From a virus, in IMG/VR virus record IMGVR_UViG_3300010401_000002, positions 1 to 64,000 of that record: 64,000 nucleotides of DNA. The stretch is one strand, 5' to 3'. A program made the translations under genes and the position numbers. Below the pieces are notes generated by a model. That model did no database searches and was not told the origin of the DNA. It worked only from the letters and a program-made list of their open reading frames with translations. Shown here one piece after another: positions 18,733 to 48,660 of this stretch; position 1 is the first letter of the stretch, and the number at the start of each line of letters is the position of its first letter.

Positions 18733-19410
18733 ATGCCGGGGGAGGTTTCATTAGCAATAGGAGCAATTCAGACAGGAGTTGCATTAGCGAATCTTTTAAA
18801 GAAGCGCAACAGGCCTGAGTATAATGCCGCGCCACAGTTAGAAGCGGCTTACAGTGATGCTTTGGGGCGTACTAAATATGGCTATACAGGCAATCAAGTC
18901 TTAGGATTTAAGCAAGACCTGCAAAGGAATAATAATCAGCAATTCAGCAAAGCGACAAGTCAGTTTGGAAATCAATTAGGAGGAGTTGCAACGGCGGGAA
19001 TAAATTTTGGGAACATATCAGCATTAAATAACTTCTACAAGAATGATGCTACCCTGATGGGCGAACACGTTAGAAATGCTTATGGCATAGCTGATAAATT
19101 CCAACGCATTGCAGACATGAACACTACGGCAGCAATTCAGAATTACAATCAGAATCAACAGGCATGGGGACATGCACTGGAATCGGGAATTTACAACACG
19201 GCATACGGAGTTAATTCGCAGTTGATGAAAAACAATCCGGCAGACCCTAATGTGGTGGTTAATCCTGTAACGGGACAGCCAGCAGCAGTAACAACAGGTG
19301 CACCTTCAAACGTTCCGCAATATGACAACACTTTTGATAACACAGATACGACATTGTTCGACCCTACATTTGCGCCTTCAACCTCTCACTTTAAAAAAGG
19401 AGTAATGTAA
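18733..19410 (+). CDS. Putative internal virion (ejection) protein, small
   Basis: A 225-residue protein with an N-terminal hydrophobic Ala/Gly-rich helix (SLAIGAIQTGVALANLLKK), then a Gln/Asn-rich helical body and a disordered tail. This composition is typical of podovirus ejection proteins that leave the capsid with the DNA and form a channel through the envelope. Its stop overlaps the start of the next gene, supporting a joint unit with 19410 and 20871. Confidence 0.55.
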   Translation: MPGEVSLAIGAIQTGVALANLLKKRNRPEYNAAPQLEAAYSDALGRTKYGYTGNQVLGFKQDLQRNNNQQFSKATSQFGNQLGGVATAGINFGNISALNNFYKNDATLMGEHVRNAYGIADKFQRIADMNTTAAIQNYNQNQQAWGHALESGIYNTAYGVNSQLMKNNPADPNVVVNPVTGQPAAVTTGAPSNVPQYDNTFDNTDTTLFDPTFAPSTSHFKKGVM

Positions 19411-20867
19411 TGGCCGATTATGGACTTGGGATTGGATTAAGTGGCAAACTCACCAACGTTGAGCGTCAAGATGAGGCGCAGCGCAACCGTGACTATAAGG
19501 CACTCGCAGCGCAGGGAGCAGCAGCAGCAAAGCAAAAAGAGGCCGCACAAAAAAATTATGACGATTGGAGTAAGCTGATTGCCAATAACAATCCGAATAT
19601 ACTGCCTGTTTATACAAAGCCAACAAGCGATATTTCTATTAAGTTAATATCAGATATGACAAGTGGTGTGCAGAAAAATCCTATGTACACACAATCACCT
19701 GAATTTTTAGCGAAGATTGCAGATTGGAGGGCTAAGACGAATTTATATGAGCAGGTGTCGGAGGGAGCGAAGAAAGCAATAGATTACGCAAGTCAACATC
19801 CTGACGATGCTGAATTAGACCCAAAGATAGCAGCAGCAATAAATGATGTTAATTATGACGGGCTTGTTAGCGCAATAGGGGATAGGGTAAAACAACTTGA
19901 CCCTAACGCGGTTGGGGTTAATACAGATATGCTAAGTCCCGATATACTGTTAGTTCACAAAGCTAATCCAATAAAACTAAAAGCTGCTATCGAAAATGCA
20001 GGCGACCCTACTGCGGTATATGCAGAGAAATCATTGGGTTCAGGTACAGATGCAACAGGGACGTTTCAACGCTATCAGCCTATATACCAAAGAGATGCGC
20101 GTAAGATGGCTGAAACAAGCGAGTACCTAAGAGAGTTGAATAACAGCGACAAGCGAAACAAACAATATGACAAAGCAGGGTGGGAAGTATTGCACGGTGC
20201 TGAATCTGCTAAATTATTGACACCCACTACAAGGTATGCGCCACAGGGTAAAGGCGGGTTAAATATACGCAACGGTGTCGCCACGAACGACAAAGGTAAT
20301 GTTATATTTACAGTAACCGACCCAAATGAAAGTGGCGAACGCAAGTTTATAGGAACATTTAAAAATGTACCGTATGAGGATAATAAACTTAAATTCACGC
20401 AACAAGAGAAAGGTAGCGATGGTAAATACCATGATGCAACTTACTACGTGCATAAACCTGTTCCTATAACCGATGGGAAGGGGAATATAAGATTTGAAGG
20501 AGATTATTTTGACGATACCGATAAAGACCCTGTTGATTCAAAACAGCACTCGTTCGTGAATAACGGTTGGGTAAAAGTGAATAGTGAAGCAGGAAAGAAG
20601 TTATTATCTCAATACGTTGCGCTGACAAACAACACAGTTGAAATAGACCCATCGGATAAGGCAAATCCAATAAAGTTTGTTTCAGACCCCAACGGACAAT
20701 TGAATAATGTTACAGGGAATTTAGAAGGGTTGGTAAAAGGCGTTAATAGCAGCATATCGCCTGCAAAGGGGACTTCGATTAATGCACCGAAGAAAGGTAA
20801 GACCACAGTACCAAAGGCAGATAAATCGAAATTAACGAATACTGTAAAAAGCATATTTGGAAAATAA
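19410..20867 (+). CDS. Putative internal virion (cargo) protein
   Basis: A 485-residue protein, Lys/Asp/Asn-rich, with helical N-terminal region (residues 20-160) and a beta-rich middle (about 290-400), then a Lys/Thr-rich disordered tail ending in KSIFGK. No known domain. Overlap with the gene before and a 3-nt gap to the giant gene after suggest co-translation and a shared role as packaged cargo. Confidence 0.5.
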   Translation: MADYGLGIGLSGKLTNVERQDEAQRNRDYKALAAQGAAAAKQKEAAQKNYDDWSKLIANNNPNILPVYTKPTSDISIKLISDMTSGVQKNPMYTQSPEFLAKIADWRAKTNLYEQVSEGAKKAIDYASQHPDDAELDPKIAAAINDVNYDGLVSAIGDRVKQLDPNAVGVNTDMLSPDILLVHKANPIKLKAAIENAGDPTAVYAEKSLGSGTDATGTFQRYQPIYQRDARKMAETSEYLRELNNSDKRNKQYDKAGWEVLHGAESAKLLTPTTRYAPQGKGGLNIRNGVATNDKGNVIFTVTDPNESGERKFIGTFKNVPYEDNKLKFTQQEKGSDGKYHDATYYVHKPVPITDGKGNIRFEGDYFDDTDKDPVDSKQHSFVNNGWVKVNSEAGKKLLSQYVALTNNTVEIDPSDKANPIKFVSDPNGQLNNVTGNLEGLVKGVNSSISPAKGTSINAPKKGKTTVPKADKSKLTNTVKSIFGK

Positions 20868-20870
20868 ATA

Positions 20871-23800
20871 ATGGCAGAAGTATTAGATGCACCTGTACAA
20901 GAAGCACCTCAAACCGATAAGTTGGGGCAACTATATTCTGCATTAAAATCAGACCCTACATATACCAATGTTTTGCCGGACGAAAAAGCGTTTCGTGAAA
21001 CAATGAACAATCCCGAAAAAGCATCTGCATTGCACGATGTTTTGTTGCAGGATGAGACTTATAAAAGCGTAGTGCCAAAAGATTTCGCTGATTTTGCAGG
21101 AACGTTGGAGTTGGGGAAGAAGGAGCAGCCCGCTACACCGCAAGAGCCGCAACAACAACCTCTAATTCAAAAAATAAACTCCCCCAAAATAGGTGTAGAA
21201 AAAAATCCATTTCTAAAGCCGTCCGATAATAACGGTATGGCAGCAGACATGAAGCAAATGACGGCTACAGGAAATCCAATGCCTGAAATCAAAAATGCTT
21301 TACAAGGAGCAATTATAAATCATAGTGCAGCAGGATTAAAAGATTTGGGAGTGGAATTACCCGACTTGAATCCGAAAGATATAAACCCCGAAAAGCAAGG
21401 ATTTGAGAAATCATATTCAGACAAATTAGTAAAATCATTCACCGATTCGCAGCAGTTAAAAGATGAAATATTAGACAGCCCGAATTATCAGCAAAAGATT
21501 GCTAATGAGGTGTCAAAGAAATATTCAGTACCGCAACAAGATGTACTGAATTATATTTCTAAAGTAAACGATACCAAAAAAGACATTCGCTCAAACTTAG
21601 CCGACATAGCACTTAATCCACAAAACGATAAGGCTTATGGTGAATTGGGGAATAACTATTACGGTATAGGTGAATATGACAACGCTGAAAAGGCTTACAT
21701 GGCTGCATTGAGCGTTGACCCTAATAGCGAAGGTGCAAAAAATGGATTAGGCAGCGTTGCATTACAGAAAAAAGATTATCCAACAGCTGTGCAAATGTTT
21801 AGAGAATTGGCATCGGTCAATCCAAATACAGATAACATTTCGAAACTTGCAACAGCCGTATATGGCACAGGGGACTTTGCTAAAGCGCATGAATTAGCCG
21901 ATGCTGCGGTTAATGCAGGCGGTGATATGCCAGATGCTTATGCACTAAAGATAAGGGCTGTAACAAATGCAGTATTAGGCGATAACAAGCAGTCAATAGC
22001 GGACACAAAAGCAAGTGCTGAAATTGAAGGAATGAATGAGCAGCAAGGCGGTGGATATAAAGATGAAAATGGCGTTCCAATTAATGAACATCAATTTACT
22101 CCAGATGAAATAAAGCAAAACAACTACGCAAGAGCATTAGAACAATTTGTTGATGTAGCACACGCTGTAATTGAAGGCGGATTTAATTTAATTCCTGAAA
22201 CTATTGCCGCTAAAGCAATCATTCAAATCGGAACTGAATTATCGCACTACAACGACATTAAGGGTGACATGGCCGCGAAAGGATTTAATGAACGGCTTTC
22301 CGAAGATGTTGCGCGTGATGTTCGCATTGGTTTTGCAGCAGCAACGGTATTTAGCCCCGGTATCTTAAAATTCGCCCAACAAATGCAGGTGGCGGATATG
22401 GTATTGCCAAGTCAAGTGTTAGCAGGAGTAATGCAGCCTATTTCATCTTTAACCAACGAAGGCGCAAGTAACGCTGCAAAGAATTGGGCACAGGTTGGAG
22501 ATGTAATTGCATCGCTATTAATATTTCATGGTGCAAATGAATTAGGTAGTAAGGGTTATAATCGCGCTATTGAATTGGGTGAAAAGATTAAGGGCAACAT
22601 CGCTTTGACTAAGCAAGATGTTGCTGATATTGCAGATGGATTTAACGGAATTACACCCGCTACGGTATTTGCTATTGACAAGAATATTGCGGAGAATGGG
22701 GGGATTAATATAGATAAGAAGGCGGTGGATAAGTCTTTGATAAGCAATGACCAATTAGAACCAGAAAGCAAACAGGCCACAATACCGCCTGCCGACCAAA
22801 AAGAGCTATCTGATTTTGCAAAAGAAAAAGCGAGAATTAATGCGGAATACGAAAAAGATTGGGATGGCTTATCTGACGAAGAAGTTAAAAAGCATCAAGA
22901 CGACAATGAGGCAGTAATTGAAAAACGAAATGAGATTTTCGACAAATATGCTACGGACGCTGAAAAAAAACAACTTGCCAAATTAGGCAAGCAAACTATA
23001 ATTGAAAAATTAAAGAAACGAAAAGCAGATGCCTATTTCAGAAAAGATAACTATATAGAAGATGTTGTTGATAGAATCGTAAAAGAAAATGTTGGCGAAG
23101 ATATTGGTGCAGAGGAATCAAAGCCAGAAAACACTATTGAAAATAAGGTTGATGATGCAGTTGAAGCACGCATAGAAAGAAGATTAAAAAATAGAAATCT
23201 TACCGAGGCTAAAGGAAGCACGTTTTATGAGGACACAAATCTTAAAAACGCAAAAGTTGGAGATGAAATTCACTTTAGCCAACGCGAGAACGGGGAATGG
23301 AAAGATTATAAAACAAAGGTAAAGAGTATAGTTGATGGCAAGATTATATTTGAAAACGGCAAAACAGAAGATGATGTTTCGTCTTACATGAATATAACAG
23401 CAGAGGACGCATGGTTTGCTAAAAATCATCCGGAATTAACGCTTGATAAATCCTCGCAGTCCGAAAGCAAAGTTGAACCCGCCACCCAAGAACCCATACC
23501 CGAAACAGCATCAGCCGAACCCGAAAAGAAAAGTCTTGCAGGGGTTAAGCAAGAGGGTGAGGGTAAGGCAATGAATAGTGATTTAGAGAACAGGGTTTTT
23601 GAACACGATGGGGATATTAAATCTGAAATAAAAGCCATTGATAAAGCGCAGCATGAAAGGGGAAACGTATATTATTTAGATTCCACTACACTAAAAAATG
23701 CGCCTAAAGAAACACTTGATGAAATAAAGGCTGCTTATAAACCAGTAATTGATAAAATTAAATCAGAACACGGGTCAGATGAAATAAGTTTATATCGCTC

Positions 23801-26800
23801 ACAAGAAACATTTCCATCTGGCCTAATTCATAATGGAGAGTTTTTATCATTTACAACAAGGCCATCATTCGCTAAATATTGGAATAAAGAAAAAATGTAT
23901 AGAGATTTTCCTCTATGGTCATTTATTGCGGAAGTTAAAGTTCCCTTTGATGATATTGTGCTTCCCAAAACAAATTTAGGGCAATACGAGTTTGTCGTTG
24001 AGAACAAAGGCAAGACGAAAGAATATTTTGAAAAGCAGATTGAAATAAAAAAACAAGAGTTAGCGGCTGTTGGGTTAAATCAGAAATCAGATTCAGGGCA
24101 TTTAGAGTTAGCGATTAAAGAAGGGCGTTTTCAGAAGGCTATTTCAGAAGGTAAAATGAAACAAAGTGACGCTATCGAATTGATAGAAGGCGCAGGTTTA
24201 GAAGTTCCCGAAGATATTAAACCTGCCGCTAACAAAGAATCAGCGCAGGTGGCCGAAGAAACACCGCTAAAGAGTGACGTTACTGAACCCGTAAGTTCAA
24301 GTAGCACTTCGGAGAAACCCACCCCAGATGAATCCCGCCAATTTGCAATAGACTTTGTAAATCACGATTTGGTTGAAGTGCAAAAAGCACCAACTAAAAC
24401 TAAAGGCGAAAATAACCGTCCAAGCGGCACAAATACAGCAGCGCGATTAGATTTAGGCATGAGTAACGAAGAAAAGATTAGTGCTATAAAACAAATCAAA
24501 TCGGGTAAATACGATGGAGTTGCGGCAAAAAAGTTGCTGGATAAACTTATTGATATGCACCAGAGGGATGATTTTGCATTTATTCAGGGTACAGGTGGTA
24601 ATACTGAAATGGTGCAGGACAGACCTACAAGACAGAATCTACATGAAGCAATTGAGATTGCGAAACTTACGGATAGCGAATATGATAAGCAGGCAGAATT
24701 AGATAATAAAATTGCAGACCACATTGCCGAACATGGGATTACAACAGTTGAAGATGTTACGGCATTAGAAGGTTTTCCATTAAGCCATGAAGATGCTGAA
24801 TTAATTAAAGAATATTTAAAATCAAAAACAGATGGAACAGACAAAGAAAGCACCAACACAGAATCAGTTGAAAGTAGCAGCAAAAGCAAAGATACTTCTG
24901 CAAAAAGCAAAGAAGTGGAAGATGACCCAAACAGGCGAAAAGCCGAAGCAGATTATGAATCAGAATTAGCCGACAAGCAAAAAGCGGTTGATGATGCCAA
25001 ATCGGATTACGATAAGGCACTAAAGAAAATAAATAAGAGTGGTAACGTGTTGTTTGAAAATGTTATGGGGGTTGAGGCTGATGTACAGCACAATCCAGAA
25101 GCAGCAATAAAACCGTTTAAAGAAAAACTTGACAAAGCGAAAGGTCTATTATCTGAATTTGAAAATAATAAAGATAAGTATATAGATGAACGTTATAAGA
25201 ATCAACAGGATTTATTTAATCAAAAACAATTAAAAGAAACGGAGGCCACAAATGCCATTCAAGAGCAAAGCACAACAAAGGTATCTGGAAGCGAACCACC
25301 CAAAGGGAGTGAATCTAAAGGAGTGGGAGAAAGCAACAAACTTCAAGAAGTTGCCGGAGAAGGTGAAGCCGGGAAAGAAAAAGTAACCCCACCAAAGCCC
25401 AAACTCAAATTCAAGCGCAACACCGAAAAGATTAGCAACCTCGATGATGAAATAAAATCGCTTATCACAAAGTCAAGAGGCGAAACTAACACCTTAGTAA
25501 ACTTTGGTGATGCAGTAAAAGTGGTTGCAAAGCTAATTGAGCGCGGCATCTATAAGGCAGAAGATATTGCAAAGTATCTAATTGAACGCGGTTACAATGA
25601 CGTTGTGCCCCATATAAAAGATGCACTAAAGCACATTAAAGAAAACTTTGAGTTAGACCCCGAAGTTAAAACAGCATTGAATAATGATGCTTTACAACAA
25701 GGTCAGACAGGAGTACGTCACGCAGATGTTGATGTAGATGCTGAATTAATGGGAATGAACCCTGTTGAGAAAATGCAGGCTATACCACGTATTGAATCAG
25801 AACAGTCGGCAAGAAAGATTTATGAAAGTCAAAACATGGCCGCAAAGGTTATTGATTTGAACGAAAAGCCGCGACCAATTAATAATGACGAACAAGGCGC
25901 ATTGCAATTATACATTGCAGAACTAAAGAGAAAATCTGCGGCAATATTTGACCAATGGCAGCAGGCAAAACTTGCGGATAATACCGAACTTGCAGATGAA
26001 CTGAAAATACAGTTAGATGATATTCGTGACGGACAACTTACCCCTGCATGGCAGGCATTAAAAAACACCCGTAGCCAAGCCGCAAGAACATTAGGTAATT
26101 GGGAACGTGCAGTAGGCGGTGAAATGCAGTTTGAAGATTTGCGCATGGATTATATGCGGGCTAAGAACGTTACAGAAGTGCCGCCAGAAATTGAGGCGCA
26201 ACTCAAAAAGGCAGCAGATGAATATGCTGAACTTGAAAAGAAATATAATGATGCTTTAGCCGAAGACCAAGCAAAGGCAGCGAAGATTGCAGCACAGGAA
26301 AAGTTACTTGCCGAAAAGCGTGAACAGGAACGCGAATATGTAAAGCAAAAAATAAAGTCACGTCACGTTGAGAAAGCGCAACAGGTAAAAGAAATTGACG
26401 AGCGCATTGATAAACTCAAAGAACGTGCAAGGGTTGTACTGAAAAAATCATTAGGCCAGATGCACGATTTAGGCGGTGCATTAAAAACTTCATTGGAGTT
26501 TGCAGATGTTGTAAAAGATATTGTGAACGAGCATATCAAAAAAGGATTGATTGAGGGTAAGGTTAAGTTTGAAGATATAATTGACAAAGCGCACCAAGAC
26601 CTGCATGAAATATTTGAGGATATAACCACCCGCGATATTCACGAAATTTATTCTGATTATGGTGTAGTAAAGAAACCGCGTGTAGATGATTTGGCAAAAG
26701 CAAAGCGTGAAATCAAGGCAGAGGCTTTTTACGCATCAGCAACAGCAGAAGCCAAAGAAGGAACGCCACCATTTAAAAGAGTAAACCCCGGCAAAGAATC

Positions 26801-29294
26801 ACCCAACGTTCGTGCGGCAAGGCAGGAAATGGAAGAAGCGATGAAGAATAGCGGCATCGAATGGGACAAACGACCACTTGCCGACAGGAGAAAATCTGCA
26901 TTGGATAAGACTAAGCAAACGTTACAAAATCAGATTAACGATTTAACTAAGGCGGTTGAAGACGATAAGATTATTCGCAGAGAAAGAAATAATGTTACGC
27001 TTGATGAAGCCGCAGACAATTTGGTTAAACTACGTGACGAAGCAAAAGAAATCTACAAGGAACATTTTGGCGATGAACTGAAAGCGATTGATGATGCACG
27101 TAAAATTAAAACCGTACAGCAGGCATTAGATAAACTTAATAAGCGTATTGAGAAAGGTGACTTTACAGATAAGGTTACAGAAAAGACAACCAACGCAGAT
27201 TTGATTGCTATACGTGAACAGTTAAAAGATGCACATAAAAAGTTTGCTGAACTACGTGAGATTGCCGACCCCGAATACAACAATCGTAAATACAATGAAC
27301 GATTAGAAAACGCCTATAACAAACTTGCAAAGAAATATGCAGAGCGTGACGAGAATCAGCAATATGCCAATAAAGCAAAAACCACGCAGGTTATAAGCGA
27401 TAAAACATTTGCAGCATGGAAAGCAAAAGAGGCGGCAAAACGAGCATTTGAGCGAAATAAATTAAGGTGGGAACGCGATAACCAAACGCGGCCAATGAAG
27501 ATTGCTACAAGGGTATTGAGGTATATTCGGCAAGGCGCAATTTCCCGCCCAAGTGCAATATTAAAGTTAGGTGCATTTGCCTTACAAGAAGTTGCTTTTA
27601 AACCGTTAATTGACAGAGGTATTGCAAGAGGCATAACCAAAACAATATTTCCAAAATTAGCGAAATCGGTTTGGGAAGGTCAGCATATACCTATTTCAGA
27701 AGAAGTAAAAACCATGAAAGCAACATGGGATAAATTTGGTGAAGAAGCAGTAAAGATTTGGAAAACAGGTGAAGGCAGCATTGATGTTGCAGGCAAGAAA
27801 GTTCACTTAGAACCATCGCTTATTGAAACGTTTGGTATAATACACACGATAGAAAAGTCTTTGATTAAAAATACCACATTTGGATTATCATTTCAAACAA
27901 GACTTGAAATGGCAAGACGCAATGGCGAACCTGTTGATAATGAAGCCTATCAGTTTGCTATATGGAAGGATGCCTTAAAAGATGCAAACCGTTCAATATT
28001 ATTAGGTGATAATTATGCAATGAATATGTATAAGCGGGCTTTTCAGATTACAGGAAAAGAAAACCCTACTGAATACGCTGCAAAATTCTTAGCCAATTTC
28101 TTAATGCCTGTTGTAAAGGTTGGAACTAATTTTACACTACAATCTTATGAAAGAAGTTTTGGAACATATACAGGTACAGCGAAATACATTATTCATAAAG
28201 CCCTTGCAGAAACAGGACAAACGGCATTAGAGAAAATGACACCCGCACAGCGCGAAAGAACCTATCGTATGATTAATAACGGTATGATGGGCACTGCATT
28301 GGGCTTAATCGGTTGGTACGGCTATAAAAACATTGGCGGTTATTATATACCTAACCAAAAGAAAAAGGATAGTGATGTAAAAGAAGGTGATATTAAATTA
28401 ACCGATAGCATGACTATCCCACACCTGCTACTTCATAATCCACGTCTTGCACCTTTACTTATCGGGGCAACAGCGCATAAGATTTTGGATTATCAATTAA
28501 AGAAGGGTAAAATAAAAGATGCTGATTATAAAGATGTTCTTAGCGGTTTGTATGCTGCAAGTTTAGGTATATACGAAGAAAACCCTTTTGCGGTAAGCGG
28601 GGAACATCTATCAAAACTTACTGATATGAGCAATATCGGAACCAATGCCACTGATTTATTAGTTAAGCCTTTTATACCGGGAGTGATTCAGGAACTTGCC
28701 GTACAGCATGACAATTATATTAACGGCAAAGGTACATGGGCAAATCTGAAAACAGGTAATTTAATGGAACGTAAAGCACATTCGCCTACAGAAGATTTAG
28801 AACTTGCAATACCTTATTTAAGAGAAAATGTAACGGCAGGGAGTTCTTATCCTATTAGTGATACCGCAAAGAAAATGTTTGAAGATAATGATGTGCCATT
28901 ACCTACCCGTTTCAAACCCACCAAAGACCCCGAAACAAACGAGCCGTCCGCAACAATTCAAGGTGTGCATATACCTATTAATGAGGAGCAGGCTAAAGCG
29001 GTGGATAAGGAGATGGAGCAGATTATAACGAAAGAGGTTGAGGCAAGGACGAAAGGCGCAGGTAAATTTCCCGAAATAAATTCATCACATAAAGAGCATG
29101 AAGTAAAGAAGGCTATGCTGAAAGGATTGTCTGCAAAAACTTTAAAAGATGAAATCGCTGACATAAAGGAACGAGCGAAAGAAGTTGCGCTGGTAAGATT
29201 AGGTTATGCTACCAAAGAAGCAATCAAAGCTGGCATCAAAGAAAATAAGGCAGAAGCGAAAAATAAAGCTGATGAATTAAAGCATAATAAATGA
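20871..29294 (+). CDS. Giant polyvalent-type virion protein with TPR and ADP-ribosyltransferase-like domains
   Basis: A 2807-residue protein. Residues about 255-325 contain TPR-type repeats (YGIGEYDNAEKAYMAALSVDPN). Residues about 970-1045 carry the three signatures of an R-S-E class ADP-ribosyltransferase: LYRS (R976), SFTT (S993) and QYE (Q1038, E1040). Long charged coiled coils follow (about 1350-1480 and 1750-2250). The last 500 residues hold hydrophobic stretches (near 2220-2260 and 2470-2490) and end in a Lys-rich helix. Its position after two ejection-type genes and before the terminase suggests it is packaged and injected, as with phage 'polyvalent' proteins. Virion RNA polymerase motifs were not seen. 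The frame is intact through all 8.4 kb. Confidence 0.65.
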   Translation: MAEVLDAPVQEAPQTDKLGQLYSALKSDPTYTNVLPDEKAFRETMNNPEKASALHDVLLQDETYKSVVPKDFADFAGTLELGKKEQPATPQEPQQQPLIQKINSPKIGVEKNPFLKPSDNNGMAADMKQMTATGNPMPEIKNALQGAIINHSAAGLKDLGVELPDLNPKDINPEKQGFEKSYSDKLVKSFTDSQQLKDEILDSPNYQQKIANEVSKKYSVPQQDVLNYISKVNDTKKDIRSNLADIALNPQNDKAYGELGNNYYGIGEYDNAEKAYMAALSVDPNSEGAKNGLGSVALQKKDYPTAVQMFRELASVNPNTDNISKLATAVYGTGDFAKAHELADAAVNAGGDMPDAYALKIRAVTNAVLGDNKQSIADTKASAEIEGMNEQQGGGYKDENGVPINEHQFTPDEIKQNNYARALEQFVDVAHAVIEGGFNLIPETIAAKAIIQIGTELSHYNDIKGDMAAKGFNERLSEDVARDVRIGFAAATVFSPGILKFAQQMQVADMVLPSQVLAGVMQPISSLTNEGASNAAKNWAQVGDVIASLLIFHGANELGSKGYNRAIELGEKIKGNIALTKQDVADIADGFNGITPATVFAIDKNIAENGGINIDKKAVDKSLISNDQLEPESKQATIPPADQKELSDFAKEKARINAEYEKDWDGLSDEEVKKHQDDNEAVIEKRNEIFDKYATDAEKKQLAKLGKQTIIEKLKKRKADAYFRKDNYIEDVVDRIVKENVGEDIGAEESKPENTIENKVDDAVEARIERRLKNRNLTEAKGSTFYEDTNLKNAKVGDEIHFSQRENGEWKDYKTKVKSIVDGKIIFENGKTEDDVSSYMNITAEDAWFAKNHPELTLDKSSQSESKVEPATQEPIPETASAEPEKKSLAGVKQEGEGKAMNSDLENRVFEHDGDIKSEIKAIDKAQHERGNVYYLDSTTLKNAPKETLDEIKAAYKPVIDKIKSEHGSDEISLYRSQETFPSGLIHNGEFLSFTTRPSFAKYWNKEKMYRDFPLWSFIAEVKVPFDDIVLPKTNLGQYEFVVENKGKTKEYFEKQIEIKKQELAAVGLNQKSDSGHLELAIKEGRFQKAISEGKMKQSDAIELIEGAGLEVPEDIKPAANKESAQVAEETPLKSDVTEPVSSSSTSEKPTPDESRQFAIDFVNHDLVEVQKAPTKTKGENNRPSGTNTAARLDLGMSNEEKISAIKQIKSGKYDGVAAKKLLDKLIDMHQRDDFAFIQGTGGNTEMVQDRPTRQNLHEAIEIAKLTDSEYDKQAELDNKIADHIAEHGITTVEDVTALEGFPLSHEDAELIKEYLKSKTDGTDKESTNTESVESSSKSKDTSAKSKEVEDDPNRRKAEADYESELADKQKAVDDAKSDYDKALKKINKSGNVLFENVMGVEADVQHNPEAAIKPFKEKLDKAKGLLSEFENNKDKYIDERYKNQQDLFNQKQLKETEATNAIQEQSTTKVSGSEPPKGSESKGVGESNKLQEVAGEGEAGKEKVTPPKPKLKFKRNTEKISNLDDEIKSLITKSRGETNTLVNFGDAVKVVAKLIERGIYKAEDIAKYLIERGYNDVVPHIKDALKHIKENFELDPEVKTALNNDALQQGQTGVRHADVDVDAELMGMNPVEKMQAIPRIESEQSARKIYESQNMAAKVIDLNEKPRPINNDEQGALQLYIAELKRKSAAIFDQWQQAKLADNTELADELKIQLDDIRDGQLTPAWQALKNTRSQAARTLGNWERAVGGEMQFEDLRMDYMRAKNVTEVPPEIEAQLKKAADEYAELEKKYNDALAEDQAKAAKIAAQEKLLAEKREQEREYVKQKIKSRHVEKAQQVKEIDERIDKLKERARVVLKKSLGQMHDLGGALKTSLEFADVVKDIVNEHIKKGLIEGKVKFEDIIDKAHQDLHEIFEDITTRDIHEIYSDYGVVKKPRVDDLAKAKREIKAEAFYASATAEAKEGTPPFKRVNPGKESPNVRAARQEMEEAMKNSGIEWDKRPLADRRKSALDKTKQTLQNQINDLTKAVEDDKIIRRERNNVTLDEAADNLVKLRDEAKEIYKEHFGDELKAIDDARKIKTVQQALDKLNKRIEKGDFTDKVTEKTTNADLIAIREQLKDAHKKFAELREIADPEYNNRKYNERLENAYNKLAKKYAERDENQQYANKAKTTQVISDKTFAAWKAKEAAKRAFERNKLRWERDNQTRPMKIATRVLRYIRQGAISRPSAILKLGAFALQEVAFKPLIDRGIARGITKTIFPKLAKSVWEGQHIPISEEVKTMKATWDKFGEEAVKIWKTGEGSIDVAGKKVHLEPSLIETFGIIHTIEKSLIKNTTFGLSFQTRLEMARRNGEPVDNEAYQFAIWKDALKDANRSILLGDNYAMNMYKRAFQITGKENPTEYAAKFLANFLMPVVKVGTNFTLQSYERSFGTYTGTAKYIIHKALAETGQTALEKMTPAQRERTYRMINNGMMGTALGLIGWYGYKNIGGYYIPNQKKKDSDVKEGDIKLTDSMTIPHLLLHNPRLAPLLIGATAHKILDYQLKKGKIKDADYKDVLSGLYAASLGIYEENPFAVSGEHLSKLTDMSNIGTNATDLLVKPFIPGVIQELAVQHDNYINGKGTWANLKTGNLMERKAHSPTEDLELAIPYLRENVTAGSSYPISDTAKKMFEDNDVPLPTRFKPTKDPETNEPSATIQGVHIPINEEQAKAVDKEMEQIITKEVEARTKGAGKFPEINSSHKEHEVKKAMLKGLSAKTLKDEIADIKERAKEVALVRLGYATKEAIKAGIKENKAEAKNKADELKHNK

Positions 29295-29658: not shown

Positions 29659-31569
29659 ATGGAACAAATTCAGAAAGAAGGCCATTTTAAAAACGGCAAA
29701 AAAGCACCTCCACGATTATTAGAGCGAACGGTTAAGCCCGACTTTTCAAAATCAAATCATCCATTATTAGAGAAAGAAAAGTTCTGGACAAATCAAAAGC
29801 AACGTTGGATTGAAGGAACTTATGTAGAGAATGATTACGGTGCGTGGCGTGTGCCGGGGTTAAGTATCTTCAACTACGACCAAGTAATAATCAAGAACAG
29901 AAATTCAGGTAAGCGCGAACCGTATGATTTAAGGGATGGAAGTTTACTTTTACATCAAACAATAGAAAAAAACTTCCAAGACCATTTAGGGACGGCTGTA
30001 CTTAAAGCACGTTTGGTAGGATTTAGCACAGACCTTTATGGTGGATTCCCGTTTTGGCTTTGGAAAACAAACCCCGGTGCGTCAATTTCGGCAACGGCAA
30101 AAAACAAGGAGCTACTTGCAGAACTTTTTAAGGACAAAACCATATTTGCAGGGGAGCGATTAGATAAAGATATTATTGATTTCAGAAAAAGAAAGACGGG
30201 TAAAACTGCGGATGATAACTATGGCGATATACTTTTAAAAAATCAAACCAAAGACAGTGCTTATGTGCAGGTTGAACTAAAGTACAAAAATGAATTAGGC
30301 GACCCCGAAGAAATTTCAAGCCAAATGAGTTTCGTAGACACCAACCAATCATTAGAAAAGGCATCAGGGTTTTCAGGAACAGGGGCATTAGCTTTATTGT
30401 TTGATGAATTTTTCCTGCATAAATTTCCTGCGCAAACAATTCAGTCAGCAATCAACACACTATTAGACCCTAACAGCAAGAAACTTAATGCTTACATGGT
30501 ATGTGGTGGAACCTGCGAAAATACGGTAAGCGCAGAAAACTTAGCAATACTTTATACCCTTTGGACAAAATTAGAATCGCTATCATTAAGGCCGTTGTTT
30601 ATTCCTGCCCATTACGGATACGAGTGCGTTAATGGATGGAGTGATGTTGAGGCTTATAAAGAGTTTGACGAACAGGAGCGAGAAAAGTTCACACGACTAA
30701 AAGACCAAGAGGGGTTAATAGCACATTGTAAGAATCATTGTCTTACCCAAGATGATGTTTGGCAATTCGCAAAGTCAGCAGTGTTTGAAGAAGATGTTGC
30801 AAAACTTATTGAGAACCAAATAAAAGTAGCGCAACTATCAACTGAATATCAGGCAAGGAAAATAACTCTTAATAATGTTGGCGGCAATATCGAATTAACC
30901 AACAGCAAAGAGTTTCTGGATATGTACGAAATGATTGAACCTGTACGCCCCGGTGCTTTATACTACGCAACATTAGACGGAACAGCAACAGGCTTTAAGT
31001 CAGGCGCGCCCGAAGGCAGCAAGGCAGCAGCGATGATTATAAAGGGTAAAGACCAATCGAGCAAAATAGAATGTTGCCCTGTAATGTGGTGGATACACAG
31101 ACCGCAAAGAGTGATGGATAGTTACAGGGCACTTGTCAACATGGTTCGTTACTATGATAAATTTGGCGGGTTCAGATTAATTTCAGCAGAAGCCAACGCA
31201 GCAACGGCAGAACACCTTACAGAGTTTCTCTTGAATGAAGCATTAGGGAAATTTATTTTATACAAGGCTAACGGAAAACCATTTTATAGCAGGCTTACGG
31301 AACTAAAAATATCACAGTTCCTTTGGGCTAATCCGTTTTTAAGAAAATATATTCAGCATTTTTTTTGTTTACCACTGCTACATGATTTAGCAAGTAAAGA
31401 CGGCAAAGGCGATGCAATGGATAGCTTCTTAATGGGACAGCCGCTATTTCCAATAGGTTTTGATGAAGTTGCGCCAAAGAAAGAAAAACGTGTTATAGAA
31501 AAATCGGTTCTTAAACGTGTTCGTGGTAGAATGATGTGGGTTATAGAAAGAAGGACGGTTAATGCGTGA
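29659..31569 (+). CDS. terL: Terminase large subunit
   Basis: A 636-residue packaging ATPase/nuclease. Walker B is ALLFDEFF with D249-E250. The nuclease half has an RNase H-like arrangement: TLDGT (D440), LISAEAN (E511) and GDAMDSF (D585/D588). The Walker A region is divergent (KARLVGFSTDLYGG), as in many Bacteroidota phages. It cuts concatemeric DNA and pumps it through the portal, which is the next gene. A strong hairpin follows the stop. Confidence 0.85.
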   Translation: MEQIQKEGHFKNGKKAPPRLLERTVKPDFSKSNHPLLEKEKFWTNQKQRWIEGTYVENDYGAWRVPGLSIFNYDQVIIKNRNSGKREPYDLRDGSLLLHQTIEKNFQDHLGTAVLKARLVGFSTDLYGGFPFWLWKTNPGASISATAKNKELLAELFKDKTIFAGERLDKDIIDFRKRKTGKTADDNYGDILLKNQTKDSAYVQVELKYKNELGDPEEISSQMSFVDTNQSLEKASGFSGTGALALLFDEFFLHKFPAQTIQSAINTLLDPNSKKLNAYMVCGGTCENTVSAENLAILYTLWTKLESLSLRPLFIPAHYGYECVNGWSDVEAYKEFDEQEREKFTRLKDQEGLIAHCKNHCLTQDDVWQFAKSAVFEEDVAKLIENQIKVAQLSTEYQARKITLNNVGGNIELTNSKEFLDMYEMIEPVRPGALYYATLDGTATGFKSGAPEGSKAAAMIIKGKDQSSKIECCPVMWWIHRPQRVMDSYRALVNMVRYYDKFGGFRLISAEANAATAEHLTEFLLNEALGKFILYKANGKPFYSRLTELKISQFLWANPFLRKYIQHFFCLPLLHDLASKDGKGDAMDSFLMGQPLFPIGFDEVAPKKEKRVIEKSVLKRVRGRMMWVIERRTVNA

Positions 31570-31801: not shown

Positions 31802-34207
31802 ATGGACGCACAGAATTACGCCACCGCAACGGTACGCACAGCACTCCCATACGCCACAGACGTAAAAAATTTAGAATTTATCGAATGTAAGCGTCAACCG
31901 CTATACGTTACCGAAGCGTATAAGTTTGCTAAAAACTGTTACGGGCAAAGTCAATATTTTTTAAACGTTGCCCGCAATCAGGTAAAAGACTGCTACAATA
32001 TTCGCGTTGATGTAAATACTATTGAATCGTCTGTAACGGAAGGTATTAACAGGGGCATTGTCAGAACCCGCATACACGAAGAAGTAAAAGAGAACAGGGA
32101 TTTTTATTATGGATTGCAGAATGACAACCTCATGGCGTGGAGTGCGAACAATCTTTCCATCAGCGTACCGGGTCAAGACTTAAAGAAGTACATTAATCAC
32201 ATGGACGGTGTTCAAACCGCAATGATTAAGCCTATTAAAAAAGGAATAAACACCACCATACTTGACAGTAGTTCCATTGAAAAAAAGAAAGGATTCTTAA
32301 CCCTATGCCACTTGATTATTGACAACAGGGATTTGTTTAAAGAAATGGAGGCAAAAGGTGTTGTTATACGAAACCCGTTTGCTGAAATAATTCCCAATAT
32401 AACCGATATTGAAATTGAAGATATAAAAGATATTGAGGATGCTTGGCGTGATGAATACGAAATTGAATCTGAAATATTCCTTAACAACCTGTATCAGTTT
32501 TATGATATGGAGGAATGTTTTTTAAGGCAGTCAAAAACAAATCTAATTGAGGGTGTTTCAACAATCATTTTGGAAGATGATGGATTGTATTACAAGCCTG
32601 TACAGGTAAATGCTATACAGGCAATGATTGATATTGATTGCAACGACCAATATGGCCGCGACATGATGCGGTGGGGATATGTTGACTATTTGACTTACGA
32701 AGATGTGTGTGCCTTAGTTCCTGATATGGACAAGGATATGAAAGCCGATATTTATAACCTATGTTATACCAACGACCAGCAAACAACAGATTGCTTAAAC
32801 TATCTTCAAGCAGGCTTTGACAATATAAAATGGATAAACCCTGATAATAAACGAATAGCTGTTGTGAAAGGATGGTTTATTGCGCCACGTAATAAGCGTT
32901 ATAAGGAGCGTGAAACAAAATTTGGTGATAGTTACATTGATATAATTGAAAACGAAAGAAAATACACCAACAGGTTTTTAGATGTTCCGCAACCCGATGG
33001 TGTATTAGGCGCTGATATACGCGGTGATTTTGACGAGTGGGATATTCATAAGTATATGATGATACTTAATAAGTATGTGTTTAATTATGGTTATGAAAGA
33101 ATTGTTTATCGCACTACACAGGAAAAATGGAAGCCACAGCCTAATGCAATTCAATTTATACACGACCGTTCACAGGCAATGTTTCGTTCACCTGCTGGAC
33201 GTTTAAAATGGAATCAATTAGAAAAAGACAGGCTAAAGAAAAAGATTGTTCAACTTACTGCAAAAGATAAGGGTCGCAATCTTATGGTTTATGCTGATGA
33301 ACTCACAGATGGATTAAAAGGTCTGATTGAAGATTTTGATGCACAAGGTATATCATTGAAGTTATCACCCAAAGTTGACCATAATCCGCAGGGGAATAAC
33401 AATCAGATTAATACTGTTTCGGAGGTGGTGGATTTATCGCTCTCAAACACTGTGTTGTCTTACTTAGAGCTTATCCGTTCGGAGAAACAGGAGATGAATG
33501 AAATTGCAGGGATTTCAGAGATTCAGCTTGGTCAGGATTCACAGACTATGGGCAAAGGCGTGAGGGAGGCAAGAGTAGCGGCAAGTCAGCAAGGATTAGT
33601 GTCGCAGTATGAATCGTTTGGGAAGTTCTGTACTATTACATTGCAGAGGTTTTTTGATTATAATAAGTTATGCCTTCCTCAAATCAAAAATGAGGAGAAT
33701 CTTTTCATAAGCAAAAGAGGAGAGAATTTATTTGAGTTTACGAAGGAGTTAAGTACGGCACAAATCACCTTGCATATTGATAGTGTGACTGAAATTGACC
33801 CCAAAGAAAAGGATGGTATAATCATGGCTGCGGGCGCAATGGCGCAGCAATCACAGTACTTACAGGACGTAGGTGTATCTCCTATGTTACCATTTCGGCT
33901 AATGCGGGCAACTAACACCGACATTGCGCTTGCGGAAGCAGAACGTTCCATTAGAAAATCACAAAAGAAATTTGCTGCAACACAAGCTGCTAAATTTAAG
34001 TCTGAACAAGATAATGCTGCACAAGCTAATCAAGTGCCTATACTTTTAGAAAAAATGAAACAGGACAATGAAAATTGGCGCACCACCCAAACGAACGAGG
34101 TCAAAGCGATGACAGCGAAAATGGATAAGACTATGGAGTTTTTACAATTGCTTATGCAGCAACCGGAACCGGGGGATGGACAGCCTACGCAATCTCAACC
34201 CGCGTAG
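31802..34207 (+). CDS. Portal protein
   Basis: An 801-residue protein directly after the terminase. The central to C-terminal section has the usual portal pattern: a stretch of helices (EVVDLSLSNTVLSYLELIRS), then the conserved-type EMNEIAGISEIQLG, then a long Gln-rich helical tail. Portals form the dodecameric DNA gate at one capsid vertex. The C-terminus (about 690-801) is Gln/Lys-rich coiled coil. It ends in convergent overlap with the leftward gene at 34195. Confidence 0.75.
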   Translation: MDAQNYATATVRTALPYATDVKNLEFIECKRQPLYVTEAYKFAKNCYGQSQYFLNVARNQVKDCYNIRVDVNTIESSVTEGINRGIVRTRIHEEVKENRDFYYGLQNDNLMAWSANNLSISVPGQDLKKYINHMDGVQTAMIKPIKKGINTTILDSSSIEKKKGFLTLCHLIIDNRDLFKEMEAKGVVIRNPFAEIIPNITDIEIEDIKDIEDAWRDEYEIESEIFLNNLYQFYDMEECFLRQSKTNLIEGVSTIILEDDGLYYKPVQVNAIQAMIDIDCNDQYGRDMMRWGYVDYLTYEDVCALVPDMDKDMKADIYNLCYTNDQQTTDCLNYLQAGFDNIKWINPDNKRIAVVKGWFIAPRNKRYKERETKFGDSYIDIIENERKYTNRFLDVPQPDGVLGADIRGDFDEWDIHKYMMILNKYVFNYGYERIVYRTTQEKWKPQPNAIQFIHDRSQAMFRSPAGRLKWNQLEKDRLKKKIVQLTAKDKGRNLMVYADELTDGLKGLIEDFDAQGISLKLSPKVDHNPQGNNNQINTVSEVVDLSLSNTVLSYLELIRSEKQEMNEIAGISEIQLGQDSQTMGKGVREARVAASQQGLVSQYESFGKFCTITLQRFFDYNKLCLPQIKNEENLFISKRGENLFEFTKELSTAQITLHIDSVTEIDPKEKDGIIMAAGAMAQQSQYLQDVGVSPMLPFRLMRATNTDIALAEAERSIRKSQKKFAATQAAKFKSEQDNAAQANQVPILLEKMKQDNENWRTTQTNEVKAMTAKMDKTMEFLQLLMQQPEPGDGQPTQSQPA

Positions 34208-34901: not shown

Positions 34902-35175
34902 TTATTGGGACTACTCCAAAGAAGTCGGTTAGTGATTGTATTTTATTTGCAAAATCTTTCTCTAAAACTATCTCACAGGATTGAACGCCAACTATGCCGT
35001 CCTTCTTATACATGACGCACACTCCATATTTACCTTTATCGTAAGCGCAGGAAATTAAATAATATCTGTCGCTATGTTTAATAAGCGTTTTGTCAGGCAA
35101 CGGGTTTACAATATTAGATTGCGCCTCTAATCTTTCTCTTACGGTTTCGCTAAAATATAATTCGTTATTTTTCAT
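34891..35175 (-). CDS. Hypothetical protein in integrase operon
   Basis: Ninety-four residues with beta-strand pattern (RYYLISCAYDKGKYGVCVMY). Its start overlaps the integrase stop by 4 nt, so it is translationally coupled to the integrase. No recognised family. Confidence 0.6.
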   Translation of the reverse strand: MKNNELYFSETVRERLEAQSNIVNPLPDKTLIKHSDRYYLISCAYDKGKYGVCVMYKKDGIVGVQSCEIVLEKDFANKIQSLTDFFGVVPIIEK

Positions 35176-36008
35176 TTCTTATTCCTCCAAACATCATTAA
35201 TCATAGTTGCGTGTTTAACCTGCGATGACCTAACATAGCGTAAAAAACTACTAACGTCCTTATGTCCCGTAACTGCCATTATTGTAACAGGGTCAACTTT
35301 TCTTTCGTATAGGTTCGTGCTAAATGACCTTCGACCTCCATGACTGCTAACCTTCATCGCCTTATCTCCAATGCCAGCAGCGACACAACTCATTTTAATC
35401 CACTTGTCGAAAAAACTAATGCTTACTACGGGCATTTCACCGTTATATTTCTTTAATATCTTCTTAGCATAATCATGGATTGGCAGATACACGGATGTTT
35501 TCGTCTTAGTCTGTGTAACGCTGCAAACATTCTCACCATCCTTATACTTAATTTTAGTATAGTCGCTGAAACGACATCCGGTATAACTTAGCAGTATAAA
35601 TATATCAGCACATTTCTGCTGACGTTCATCAAAGTATTTATGCTTGCGAAGCATATCAAGTTCTTTTTCGTTGAGGTGAAATGCTTGAGTTATGATAGAT
35701 TTAACTCTCACCCCGGCAGTGTTGAGTTCTATCTTAGCCAACTTACATAATTGTTTAAGCGATATTGATAACTGCACTATCGTATTCGGTGCATACTTCA
35801 ATTTAGCAGCCCTTACAAACGCAGGATAACCAAACTCCCCTTCAAGCGAATAAAGAAATTTAAGCATACTCCTGTGGGCGTTGTAGTTCGACTTTGTAAA
35901 CTCATTAGATGCAAAGACTTTCGCTAAAGTTGTTGCAATATCTTTGAATGAAGCAGTTGACTGTTCTACGGCTTCGGGGAGGGAGTATGTGGAGGTGGTG
36001 GTGAACAT
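35172..36008 (-). CDS. int: Tyrosine recombinase (integrase)
   Basis: A 278-residue site-specific recombinase. The N-terminal SAM-like core-binding region spans about 15-105. The catalytic domain has a full set of residues: R146 (TGCRFSD), K170 (QTKTKTSV), H223 and R226 (SHGGRR), H249 (TGHK) and the nucleophile Y258 (FLRYV). Phages use such enzymes to join attP and attB. It is shorter than many phage integrases and lacks an obvious arm-binding domain, resembling short Bacteroidota recombinases. Its attP is not identified. It indicates a temperate phage, or an XerCD-like resolution role. Confidence 0.9.
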   Translation of the reverse strand: MFTTTSTYSLPEAVEQSTASFKDIATTLAKVFASNEFTKSNYNAHRSMLKFLYSLEGEFGYPAFVRAAKLKYAPNTIVQLSISLKQLCKLAKIELNTAGVRVKSIITQAFHLNEKELDMLRKHKYFDERQQKCADIFILLSYTGCRFSDYTKIKYKDGENVCSVTQTKTKTSVYLPIHDYAKKILKKYNGEMPVVSISFFDKWIKMSCVAAGIGDKAMKVSSHGGRRSFSTNLYERKVDPVTIMAVTGHKDVSSFLRYVRSSQVKHATMINDVWRNKK

Positions 36009-38280: not shown

Positions 38281-39831
38281 ATGAAAAAACTTACAACCAT
38301 CCTATTAATTCTGACTGCTGTTTTAAGCGGCAAATTCGGGAAAGTAGCGTTCGCTACAGCAACATTTGTTTCACTAAAATATGAAGCAGGGCACTCACAA
38401 AACAAGCGATTAACATTTCAAAGTCCCGCGTGTTCAATATCTGCCATTGGTGATACAGGATTTTACTTTGCTGCTTATACATCAACACTGCCAACAACCT
38501 GCAATCCTGCAAATATTGCTATGTGGGGAGTGGGCAAAAGAACTATGTACAACAGCTTCGACACTACCACGTTTATGAAGGGTGTGTGGCTAAAAGAATC
38601 CGACAGCACAAACCACAACAGCATGGCAAGTGTAACAGGCATTACCATGAGTAACAATGCAGGGCGGATATTGCGTATTCCTATGGATAGCGTACTAACG
38701 GTATTCCCCAACAAAACATTTGTTGCGGCAAATTACTATCCGTTAAGCAGCAATCCAAGTGGCTATATTACAGCAAGCGCATTAAGCCCATACTATTTAG
38801 CATCAAATCCATCGGGCTATATTACCTCATCTGCATTATCACCATATCTTACAGCAAGCACAGCCGCTTCGACCTATTATCTACAAACTAATCCTGCAAA
38901 TTACATTGCTTCGATTAACAGTAGCATGGTTACAACAGCATTAGGATTTACACCTTACAACAATACCAATCCGAATAATTATATATCATCTGTTTCGAGT
39001 AGCGATATAACTACTGCATTGGGTTATACCCCTTATAATAGCTCTAATCCATCAGGTTATATTAGTAGTATAAGTAGCGGGAATATTACAACAGCATTAG
39101 GTTACACGCCCTACAATGCTGCAAATCCATCTAACTATATCAGCAGCATAACAAGCGGCAATGTAACTACGGCTTTAGGATATACTCCCGTTACCAATGC
39201 AAGAACAGTTACAATCAACGGCACAGCACAGGATTTAAGCAGCAACAGAACGTGGAGTGTAGGCACATTGGTTGCGGCAGATACAAATTCGTTAAGTAGC
39301 CGTATAAACTTAAAATTAAACAGTACCGATACAGCCACTTTCAGAACTGCATCGAATAATGCCTATGCGTCATTAACCGGAAGTTATTCAAATCCTTCAT
39401 GGATAACATCGTTAGCACAGTCAAAAGTAACATACACAGGAACCACAGCGCAGTATATCAGGGGTGACGGCACATTAGCAACATTGCCAACCGTAAGCGG
39501 GGCTACAGGAACATTCGGGGTAGTTACTACGGCAAATGGCGTTGTATCGGCAGGTAAAAGAATTGAAGTTTATTCAGGCACAACAAATGCAAGTGGTGTA
39601 TATACCGTAACGTTCGGGACGGCTTATTCAGTTGCTCCAAATATTCAGGCAAGCATTACCAATCAGTCCAGCACTAATCAATATGTTAGAATAGCATCTG
39701 TTAGCACAACAGGTTTTACAATTAACGCCTATTCGTTCAGCACAAACACCCTGCTTGGAATAGTCAACTTAATAGCAACAACAGTAAATGTAACAGGTGC
39801 AACTGTTGACGTTCTTTGCACAGAGAAATAA
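38281..39831 (+). CDS. Fibre-like repeat protein with a signal-peptide-like N-terminus
   Basis: A 516-residue protein. Residues 1-25 look like a Sec signal (MKK, then LTTILLILTAVLSG). Residues about 157-190 hold two NPSGYIT-type repeats; from 218 a 26-residue unit starting TTALGYTPYN recurs at 218, 244, 270 and 296, a repeat known from phage tail fibres. The C-terminal 90 residues (ASGVYTVTFGTAYSVAPNIQ) resemble receptor-binding fibre tips. A fibre with a secretion signal is odd: it may be displayed or released by the host cell, or the signal may serve as a membrane-like anchor. Confidence 0.6.
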   Translation: MKKLTTILLILTAVLSGKFGKVAFATATFVSLKYEAGHSQNKRLTFQSPACSISAIGDTGFYFAAYTSTLPTTCNPANIAMWGVGKRTMYNSFDTTTFMKGVWLKESDSTNHNSMASVTGITMSNNAGRILRIPMDSVLTVFPNKTFVAANYYPLSSNPSGYITASALSPYYLASNPSGYITSSALSPYLTASTAASTYYLQTNPANYIASINSSMVTTALGFTPYNNTNPNNYISSVSSSDITTALGYTPYNSSNPSGYISSISSGNITTALGYTPYNAANPSNYISSITSGNVTTALGYTPVTNARTVTINGTAQDLSSNRTWSVGTLVAADTNSLSSRINLKLNSTDTATFRTASNNAYASLTGSYSNPSWITSLAQSKVTYTGTTAQYIRGDGTLATLPTVSGATGTFGVVTTANGVVSAGKRIEVYSGTTNASGVYTVTFGTAYSVAPNIQASITNQSSTNQYVRIASVSTTGFTINAYSFSTNTLLGIVNLIATTVNVTGATVDVLCTEK

Positions 39832-48307: not shown

Positions 48308-48660
48308 TGGAAAGAAAAATAAACGAAAACGATTTGGTTGATTCTGAAATGCTAAAAACATACGGAGAAATTGATGGACTGAAAGTCATTGAGGAATTAT
48401 TGTTGTTCAAAGGCGTACAGGTTGCGGGGGCAACAAAGATTGTTCACAAAAAACACTTAGACGATATTGCATTGGTGGTTTATGGACTAAAGGCAAACGC
48501 AACCAATAGACTATACGTAGGGATGCAATTGGATAAGTTTTATAACCGTGCAGGGCTGGTGTGCGATAGTGGGAGAGTAAAAGTTCCTGTTAGTATTTAT
48601 AACAGAGTTAAAGAATTAAACGATAGTTACAAAACTAAAGATAATCAAACATATGAATAA
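48304..48660 (+). CDS. Hypothetical protein
   Basis: A 118-residue alpha/beta protein. I choose the ATG at 48304, overlapping the previous stop (ATGA); an upstream in-frame ATG at 48232 would overlap the tiny gene. No recognised family. Its end overlaps the secreted protease gene by 8 nt. Confidence 0.55.
   Translation: MMERKINENDLVDSEMLKTYGEIDGLKVIEELLLFKGVQVAGATKIVHKKHLDDIALVVYGLKANATNRLYVGMQLDKFYNRAGLVCDSGRVKVPVSIYNRVKELNDSYKTKDNQTYE

What the first reader, a model, noticed from the sequence alone, without database searches (positions are those of the whole stretch)
23796..23990. ADP-ribosyltransferase signature buried inside a 2807-residue virion-type protein
Seen in sequence: within about 65 residues the giant protein carries LYRS (R976), SFTT (S993) and QYE (Q1038-x-E1040), in the order and approximate spacing of R-S-E class ADP-ribosyltransferases, where the last motif is (Q/E)-x-E. 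Known: phages inject ART domains (for example T4 Alt) to modify host RNA polymerase, and Bacteroidota 'polyvalent' proteins combine such effectors. Inference: an effector delivered with the genome and hidden in a large packaged protein.
Basis: partly seen in the sequence, partly recalled or inferred. Interest (0 to 1): 0.8.

Follow-up and report, generated by a model that had tools for sequence, protein, structure and literature searches.

The report
ADP-ribosyltransferase domain in giant phage protein
A giant protein of an otherwise unknown, probably temperate phage very likely carries an enzyme domain that attaches ADP-ribose to host targets, and its gene sits where phages keep proteins that they inject with their DNA, in a class of domain (R-S-E) reported in 2017 as absent from such multi-effector proteins.

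Summary
Alone, the loose R...S...[QE]xE pattern is chance level. No library recognises the region.

I built a profile, without the window, from R-S-E ADP-ribosyltransferase (ART)-like phage proteins found by a motif scan of IMG/VR. It picks out residues 966-1047 and no other part of the giant protein, aligning R, S-x-T and G-[QE]-x-E. One of 100,000 shuffles scores as high, and 7 of 20,000 with 12 motif residues kept. The family links to a characterised ART, DRAT. AlphaFold2 with this alignment gives a confident model (pLDDT 84) whose best PDB neighbours are ART-fold proteins, though Foldseek scores are weak.

The giant protein's last ~1000 residues are shared with a 3109-aa phage protein carrying Kinase-PolyVal and LPD1 domains. 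It therefore looks like a polyvalent protein, third gene of a 225/485/2807-aa set upstream of the portal gene. Best reading: an injected effector with an exchangeable R-S-E ART domain. Delivery, target and activity are inferred.

Polyvalent-protein ARTs were described as H-Y-D class, with R-S-E reported absent. I found R-S-E-type candidates in other giant phage proteins too. New variant of a known kind.

The parts
20871..29294 (+). 2807-aa giant ORF, candidate polyvalent/ejection protein
   Evidence: ORF list; C-terminal ~1000 aa shared with a polyvalent protein
23718..24020 (+). R-S-E-type ART-like domain, about residues 950-1050 (profile match 966-1047)
   Evidence: HMM built without the window, shuffle and decoy controls, hhalign, AF2 model
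23796..23798 (+). R976 codon, first catalytic-motif residue, in predicted strand 1 (LYR)
   Evidence: invariant R in alignment A5
23847..23855 (+). S993-F994-T995, second motif (S-x-T), in predicted strand 2
23871..23873 (+). A1001, family-invariant alanine six residues after T995
   Evidence: alignments A1 and A5
23979..23990 (+). G1037-Q1038-Y1039-E1040, third motif (Q-x-E), in the last predicted strand
   Evidence: all 47 profile members have E in place of Q1038
21630..21950 (+). TPR repeats, residues 254-360
   Evidence: Pfam TPR_16 9e-11 and others
25698..28670 (+). C-terminal scaffold shared with other phage giant proteins, residues 1610-2600
   Evidence: blastp 2e-58 to the L129 giant protein and 6e-36/1e-21 to the L180 giant protein
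18733..19410 (+). 225-aa ORF, candidate small internal virion/ejection protein
   Evidence: gene order and reading of the sequence; no PHROG match
19410..20867 (+). 485-aa ORF directly before the giant gene, candidate mid-size ejection protein
   Evidence: gene order; no PHROG match
29659..31569 (+). 636-aa ORF, read as large terminase
   Evidence: reading of the sequence only; no PHROG match
31802..34207 (+). portal protein
   Evidence: phrog_6547 portal protein, 5.7e-18

Best explanation
Residues ~950-1050 form a minimal R-S-E-class ADP-ribosyltransferase domain embedded in a polyvalent ejection protein. Proposed working: the giant protein is made late, packaged in the head with the two proteins encoded just upstream, and ejected with the DNA. 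In the host the domain binds NAD+ with R976 and S993, uses E1040 as the catalytic glutamate, and transfers ADP-ribose to a host macromolecule early in infection. Q1038 in place of the first Glu of E-x-E suggests a target residue other than arginine. Shown: motifs, profile homology, confident predicted fold topology, shared polyvalent scaffold, gene position. Inferred: packaging, injection, catalysis, target.
For: HMM from 44 phage R-S-E ART-like proteins (window excluded) hits only 966-1047 (isolated domain 14.3 bits, P 1.9e-6). It is the best non-family ORF of 6698 apart from its own copy in L001; 1 of 100,000 shuffles scores as high; 7 of 20,000 (first profile) and 1 of 20,000 (second profile) when 12 motif residues are kept. 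Open-frame chance matches to the motif pattern score at most 1.4 bits. hhalign to A4: probability 88.8, E 2.5e-6. The profile family reaches a characterised ART: L016 and L076 match Pfam DRAT at 2e-7 and 9.5e-7, and the phrog_4776-type profile hits L076 with 31 bits. AF2 pLDDT 83.9, pTM 0.74, with R, S and E in the first, second and last strands. Top PDB fold neighbours are chains of the ADP-ribosylating toxin ParT. Sub-threshold PDB sequence hits of A4 are led by TreX and TccC3, both R-S-E ARTs by recall. Scaffold shared with L129, which carries Kinase-PolyVal and LPD1.
Against: No Pfam, NCBIfam, PHROG or PDB hit to the domain itself. Foldseek E-values to the PDB are above 0.1 and TM about 0.36. 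With the narrower profile alone the score is only 7.5 bits and hhalign 27.8%. The AF2 alignment is made of the presumed relatives, so the fold is partly imposed; without an alignment the model failed (pLDDT 36). Active-site geometry was not measured. No close relative of this domain was found, so conservation of the triad within its own lineage is untested.
Confidence: 0.62

Rival explanations
1. The domain has the ART fold but is a pseudoenzyme or structural remnant kept as a binding module of the ejection protein.
For: First Glu of the last motif is Gln, unlike all 47 profile members; the residue after R976 is Ser where most relatives have Gly; no close relatives to show conservation.
Against: R, S-x-T and the catalytic-position E are all kept, which a decaying remnant would not be expected to keep; Q-x-E is known from active ARTs (recall).
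Confidence: 0.15
2. The domain uses NAD+ but not to modify host protein: it is an NADase or acts on a nucleic acid or small molecule, for example to blunt NAD-based defence.
For: R-S-E and H-Y-[EDQ] ARTs include NADases and nucleic-acid modifiers (PMC9503650).
Against: The virion-linked R-S-E ART with known activity (T4 Alt) modifies host proteins (PMC5512222).
Confidence: 0.12
3. The giant protein is not injected; it acts in morphogenesis or in the producing cell.
For: No virion proteomics; packaging is inferred from gene order and scaffold only.
Against: A small, a mid-size and a giant gene in a row among structural genes, ahead of the portal gene, is the layout of ejection proteins such as N4 gp50-52 (three proteins with a ~3,500-residue one, PMC12633501); scaffold shared with a Kinase-PolyVal protein.
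Confidence: 0.12
4. The motifs and the profile match are coincidence in a linker region.
For: Bare motif is at chance level; no library hit; one of 100,000 shuffles scores as high.
Against: Profile match is specific in place and register and survives controls that keep the motif; confident fold.
Confidence: 0.08

Closest known systems
ART-PolyVal (Pfam PF18760, Tox-ART-HYD2-like) domains of polyvalent proteins
   Same: ART domain inside a giant multi-domain phage protein with shared polyvalent scaffold domains
   Different: Active site H-Y-D there, R-S-[Q]xE here; no PF18760 match in this genome
T4 Alt (Alt/VIP2 family, R-S-E)
   Same: R-S-E residues in the same order; virion-delivered in T4
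   Different: Alt is a separate head protein; no match of the window domain to any Pfam ART family; 2017 survey reports this family absent from genuine polyvalent proteins
phrog_4776 proteins (annotated unknown function) and DRAT (PF07357)
   Same: Y-R, S-[WF]-T, A, G-[EQ]-x-E in register
   Different: Mostly ~160-280 aa ORFs of their own; E-x-E instead of Q-x-E
R-S-E ARTs fused to MuF head proteins (PMC9503650)
   Same: R-S-E ART carried in a protein predicted to be packaged
   Different: No MuF domain found here; carrier is a TPR plus polyvalent-scaffold protein
N4 gp50-52 ejection set (PMC12633501)
   Same: Giant ejected protein with two smaller partners
   Different: N4 giant protein is an RNA polymerase; no sequence comparison was made

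Membership tests
R-S-E class ADP-ribosyltransferases | Arg after an aromatic/hydrophobic residue in strand 1 | tested here: met
   R976 in predicted strand 61-71 of the model; R invariant in A5
R-S-E class ADP-ribosyltransferases | S-x-[ST] in strand 2 | tested here: met
   S993-F-T995 in predicted strand 81-85; S, T invariant in A1
R-S-E class ADP-ribosyltransferases | [QE]-x-E in strand 5 | tested here: met
   Q1038-Y-E1040 in predicted strand 128-134 (fifth strand of the model); E1040 aligned in all
R-S-E class ADP-ribosyltransferases | ART fold | tested here: inconclusive
   pLDDT 83.9, pTM 0.74; best PDB neighbours ParT but E 0.37, TM 0.36; BFVD hits to uncharacterised phage proteins at 2e-4 and 4e-4
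R-S-E class ADP-ribosyltransferases | R, S and E clustered in a nicotinamide cleft | not testable with these tools
R-S-E class ADP-ribosyltransferases | NAD-dependent transferase activity lost without Glu | not testable with these tools
   Needs an assay
Curated Pfam/NCBIfam ART families (Alt/VIP2-like and others) | Match over the curated cut-off | tested here: not met
   No family matched the domain in Pfam or NCBIfam
ART-PolyVal (PF18760) | H-Y-D active site and PF18760 match | tested here: not met
   No match in the genome; the residues are R/S/E
Polyvalent proteins | Giant multi-domain protein with polyvalent-associated scaffold | tested here: met
   1610-2600 homologous to L129, which carries Kinase-PolyVal and LPD1; no LPD model hits the window protein directly
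Polyvalent proteins | Packaged and injected | not testable with these tools
   Gene position only

The most novel reading that the evidence does not exclude
R-S-E-class ARTs are a recurrent, exchangeable effector of phage polyvalent ejection proteins, sometimes beside an H-Y-D ART in the same chain (L157, L161). The window's Q-x-E version modifies a non-arginine residue of a host target at the moment of DNA entry.
Probability: 0.4. Interest if true: 0.65.

Novelty: new variant of a known kind. Interest (0 to 1): 0.52.

Why it matters
Polyvalent proteins are predicted first-strike effectors of phages, and their ARTs were described as one class (H-Y-D); the 2017 survey states that the Alt-type R-S-E family is absent from them (PMC5512222). 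Finding R-S-E-type domains in a polyvalent scaffold, here and in at least two giant proteins that also carry ART-PolyVal and LPD38, widens the enzymes that may enter the cell with the DNA. It also gives a testable small domain in a phage whose terminase-like and portal proteins had no tblastn match in 50,697 phage records. The work suggests as well that phrog_4776, filed as unknown function, is an ART family.

Tried and rejected
Direct searches with the domain or the giant protein found no relatives of the domain: tblastn in phages and plasmids, peptide-pattern scans, PDB sequences. The E>1 hits in Limnohabitans phage DC31 and Persicobacter lack the triad and were rejected. Scans with the terminase-like, portal and capsid-region proteins found no relatives in IMG/VR. 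AlphaFold2 on the single sequence failed. A scan for the C-terminal MPxVKxxTNF motif gave three loci, of which only L005 is a true relative. PF18760 gave nothing in the own genome and PF03496 nothing in two unrelated records. The narrow profile alone is weak, so I do not rest on it. The six F-type relatives used to sharpen the profile were found with a pattern that the window also matches, so their gain (22.5 bits; hhalign 88.8%) is partly circular; the first profile and the motif-keeping shuffles are the fairer tests.

Full report
Observation. The bare R...S...[QE]xE spacing occurs 7 times in the protein against 9.1 expected in shuffles, so the motif alone proves nothing; only the richer pattern with A1001, G1037 and the hydrophobic residues after E1040 is absent from 2000 shuffles.

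First searches. Pfam, PHROGs, NCBIfam and the PDB do not recognise the region; phage and plasmid collections hold no relative of it. The phage itself is an orphan: its terminase-like and portal proteins find nothing by tblastn in 50,697 phage records. The portal matches phrog_6547 and a phage integrase lies at 35172-36008 (-), so the phage is probably temperate.

Independent profile. I scanned IMG/VR for a pattern of R-S-E ARTs written from general knowledge of the class (S-W-T, A, F, G-E-x-E). It stopped at 120 loci, 116 with an open frame through the motif, mostly phrog_4776 proteins of unknown function. Two members, L016 and L076, match Pfam DRAT, a biochemically characterised ART, at 2e-7 and 9.5e-7, and the phrog_4776-type profile hits L076 with 31 bits. 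An HMM of 44 non-redundant members, without the window, hits the giant protein at 966-1047 and nowhere else of note, with R976, S993/T995 and G1037-x-x-E1040 in register. Tiles peak at 14.6 bits there against 5.0 elsewhere in the protein. The window is the best non-family ORF among 6698 (its own copy in L001 aside), and 1 of 100,000 shuffles reaches the score. With twelve motif residues kept in place and the rest shuffled, 7 of 20,000 reach it, so non-motif residues also carry the signal.

F-type relatives. A second scan with S-F-T and G-[QE]-x-E gave 50 loci, 25 with an open frame; the chance matches among them score at most 1.4 bits on the first profile, while others are clear relatives. Notably L157 (3554-aa open frame), L161 (at least 3090 aa), L163 and L176 carry the domain in giant proteins. 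L157 and L161 also carry LPD38 and ART-PolyVal, so they are genuine polyvalent proteins. Adding six of these loci raises the window domain to 22.5 bits, and hhalign gives probability 88.8, E 2.5e-6. This gain is partly circular because the pattern was cut to fit the window.

Structure. Without an alignment AlphaFold2 failed. With alignment A1 (37 sequences) it gives pLDDT 83.9 and pTM 0.74, with R976, S993 and E1040 in the first, second and last strands. Foldseek's best PDB hits are chains of ParT, an ADP-ribosylating toxin, but at E 0.37-0.57, probability 0.60-0.77 and TM up to 0.36. In BFVD the best hits are uncharacterised phage proteins at 2e-4 and 4e-4. The fold evidence agrees with an ART but is not decisive, and active-site distances could not be measured.

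The carrier. The giant protein has TPR repeats and a C-terminal scaffold, 1610-2600, homologous to a 3109-aa protein of another virus record (2e-58) that carries Kinase-PolyVal and LPD1, and to a giant protein in a Geobacter MAG (L180). The L129 and L180 proteins are 66% and 59% identical in two stretches of the scaffold and 47% at the N-terminus but differ in the middle, as expected for exchangeable effectors on a common delivery scaffold. In the window the giant gene follows 225- and 485-aa genes and precedes the terminase-like and portal genes. A giant ejected protein with two partners is known from N4 (PMC12633501). Packaging and injection remain inference.

Known and new. [quoted passage not shown] PMC9503650 reports R-S-E ARTs fused to MuF. 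The window protein therefore looks like a new variant: R-S-E class, in a polyvalent scaffold. All 47 profile members have E-x-E where the window has Q-x-E; from general knowledge of ARTs the first residue of this motif bears on the target residue, and Q argues against arginine. The novelty statement holds for these databases and these two surveys; later work outside the paper library was not seen.

Verdict. ART-superfamily homology is likely (about 0.85), an active enzyme somewhat less (about 0.65), delivery with the genome likely by context (about 0.75). These three numbers are my judgement, not computed. The target is unknown.

Noticed in passing
L007-L126, e.g. L007:2800-3168:-: phrog_4776, a widespread phage family filed as unknown function, looks like an R-S-E ART family linked to DRAT through L076.
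   Followed up: partly
L161:4577-5017:+, L157:10333-10773:-, L163:1747-2193:+: R-S-E-type ART-like domain inside giant phage proteins; L157 and L161 also carry LPD38 and ART-PolyVal, and in L161 the domain lies just before the ART-PolyVal domain.
   Followed up: partly
L180:1085-11281:+ (ORF residues ~585-660): Giant protein in a Geobacter MAG shares the scaffold with L129 but has a different middle, including an LYR...SFTT stretch with a weak ART profile score (9.5 bits) and no clear third motif.
   Followed up: partly
L129:2339-11665:+: 3109-aa polyvalent protein with Kinase-PolyVal, LPD1 and an HExxH-like stretch, near an integrase-like ORF.
   Followed up: partly
window 25503-25625 (residues ~1545-1585 of the giant ORF): Stretch 'YKAEDIAKYLIERGYNDVVPHI' resembles segments recalled from other polyvalent proteins; it gives a weak second match to the ART profile, judged chance.
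   Followed up: no
window 48653-49759 (+): ORF with M12-type metallopeptidase and fibronectin III matches.
   Followed up: no
window 62952-63725 (-): Pentapeptide-repeat protein.
   Followed up: no
window 38281-39831 (+): ORF with a sub-threshold H-type lectin match near its C-terminus; possible receptor-binding protein.
   Followed up: no
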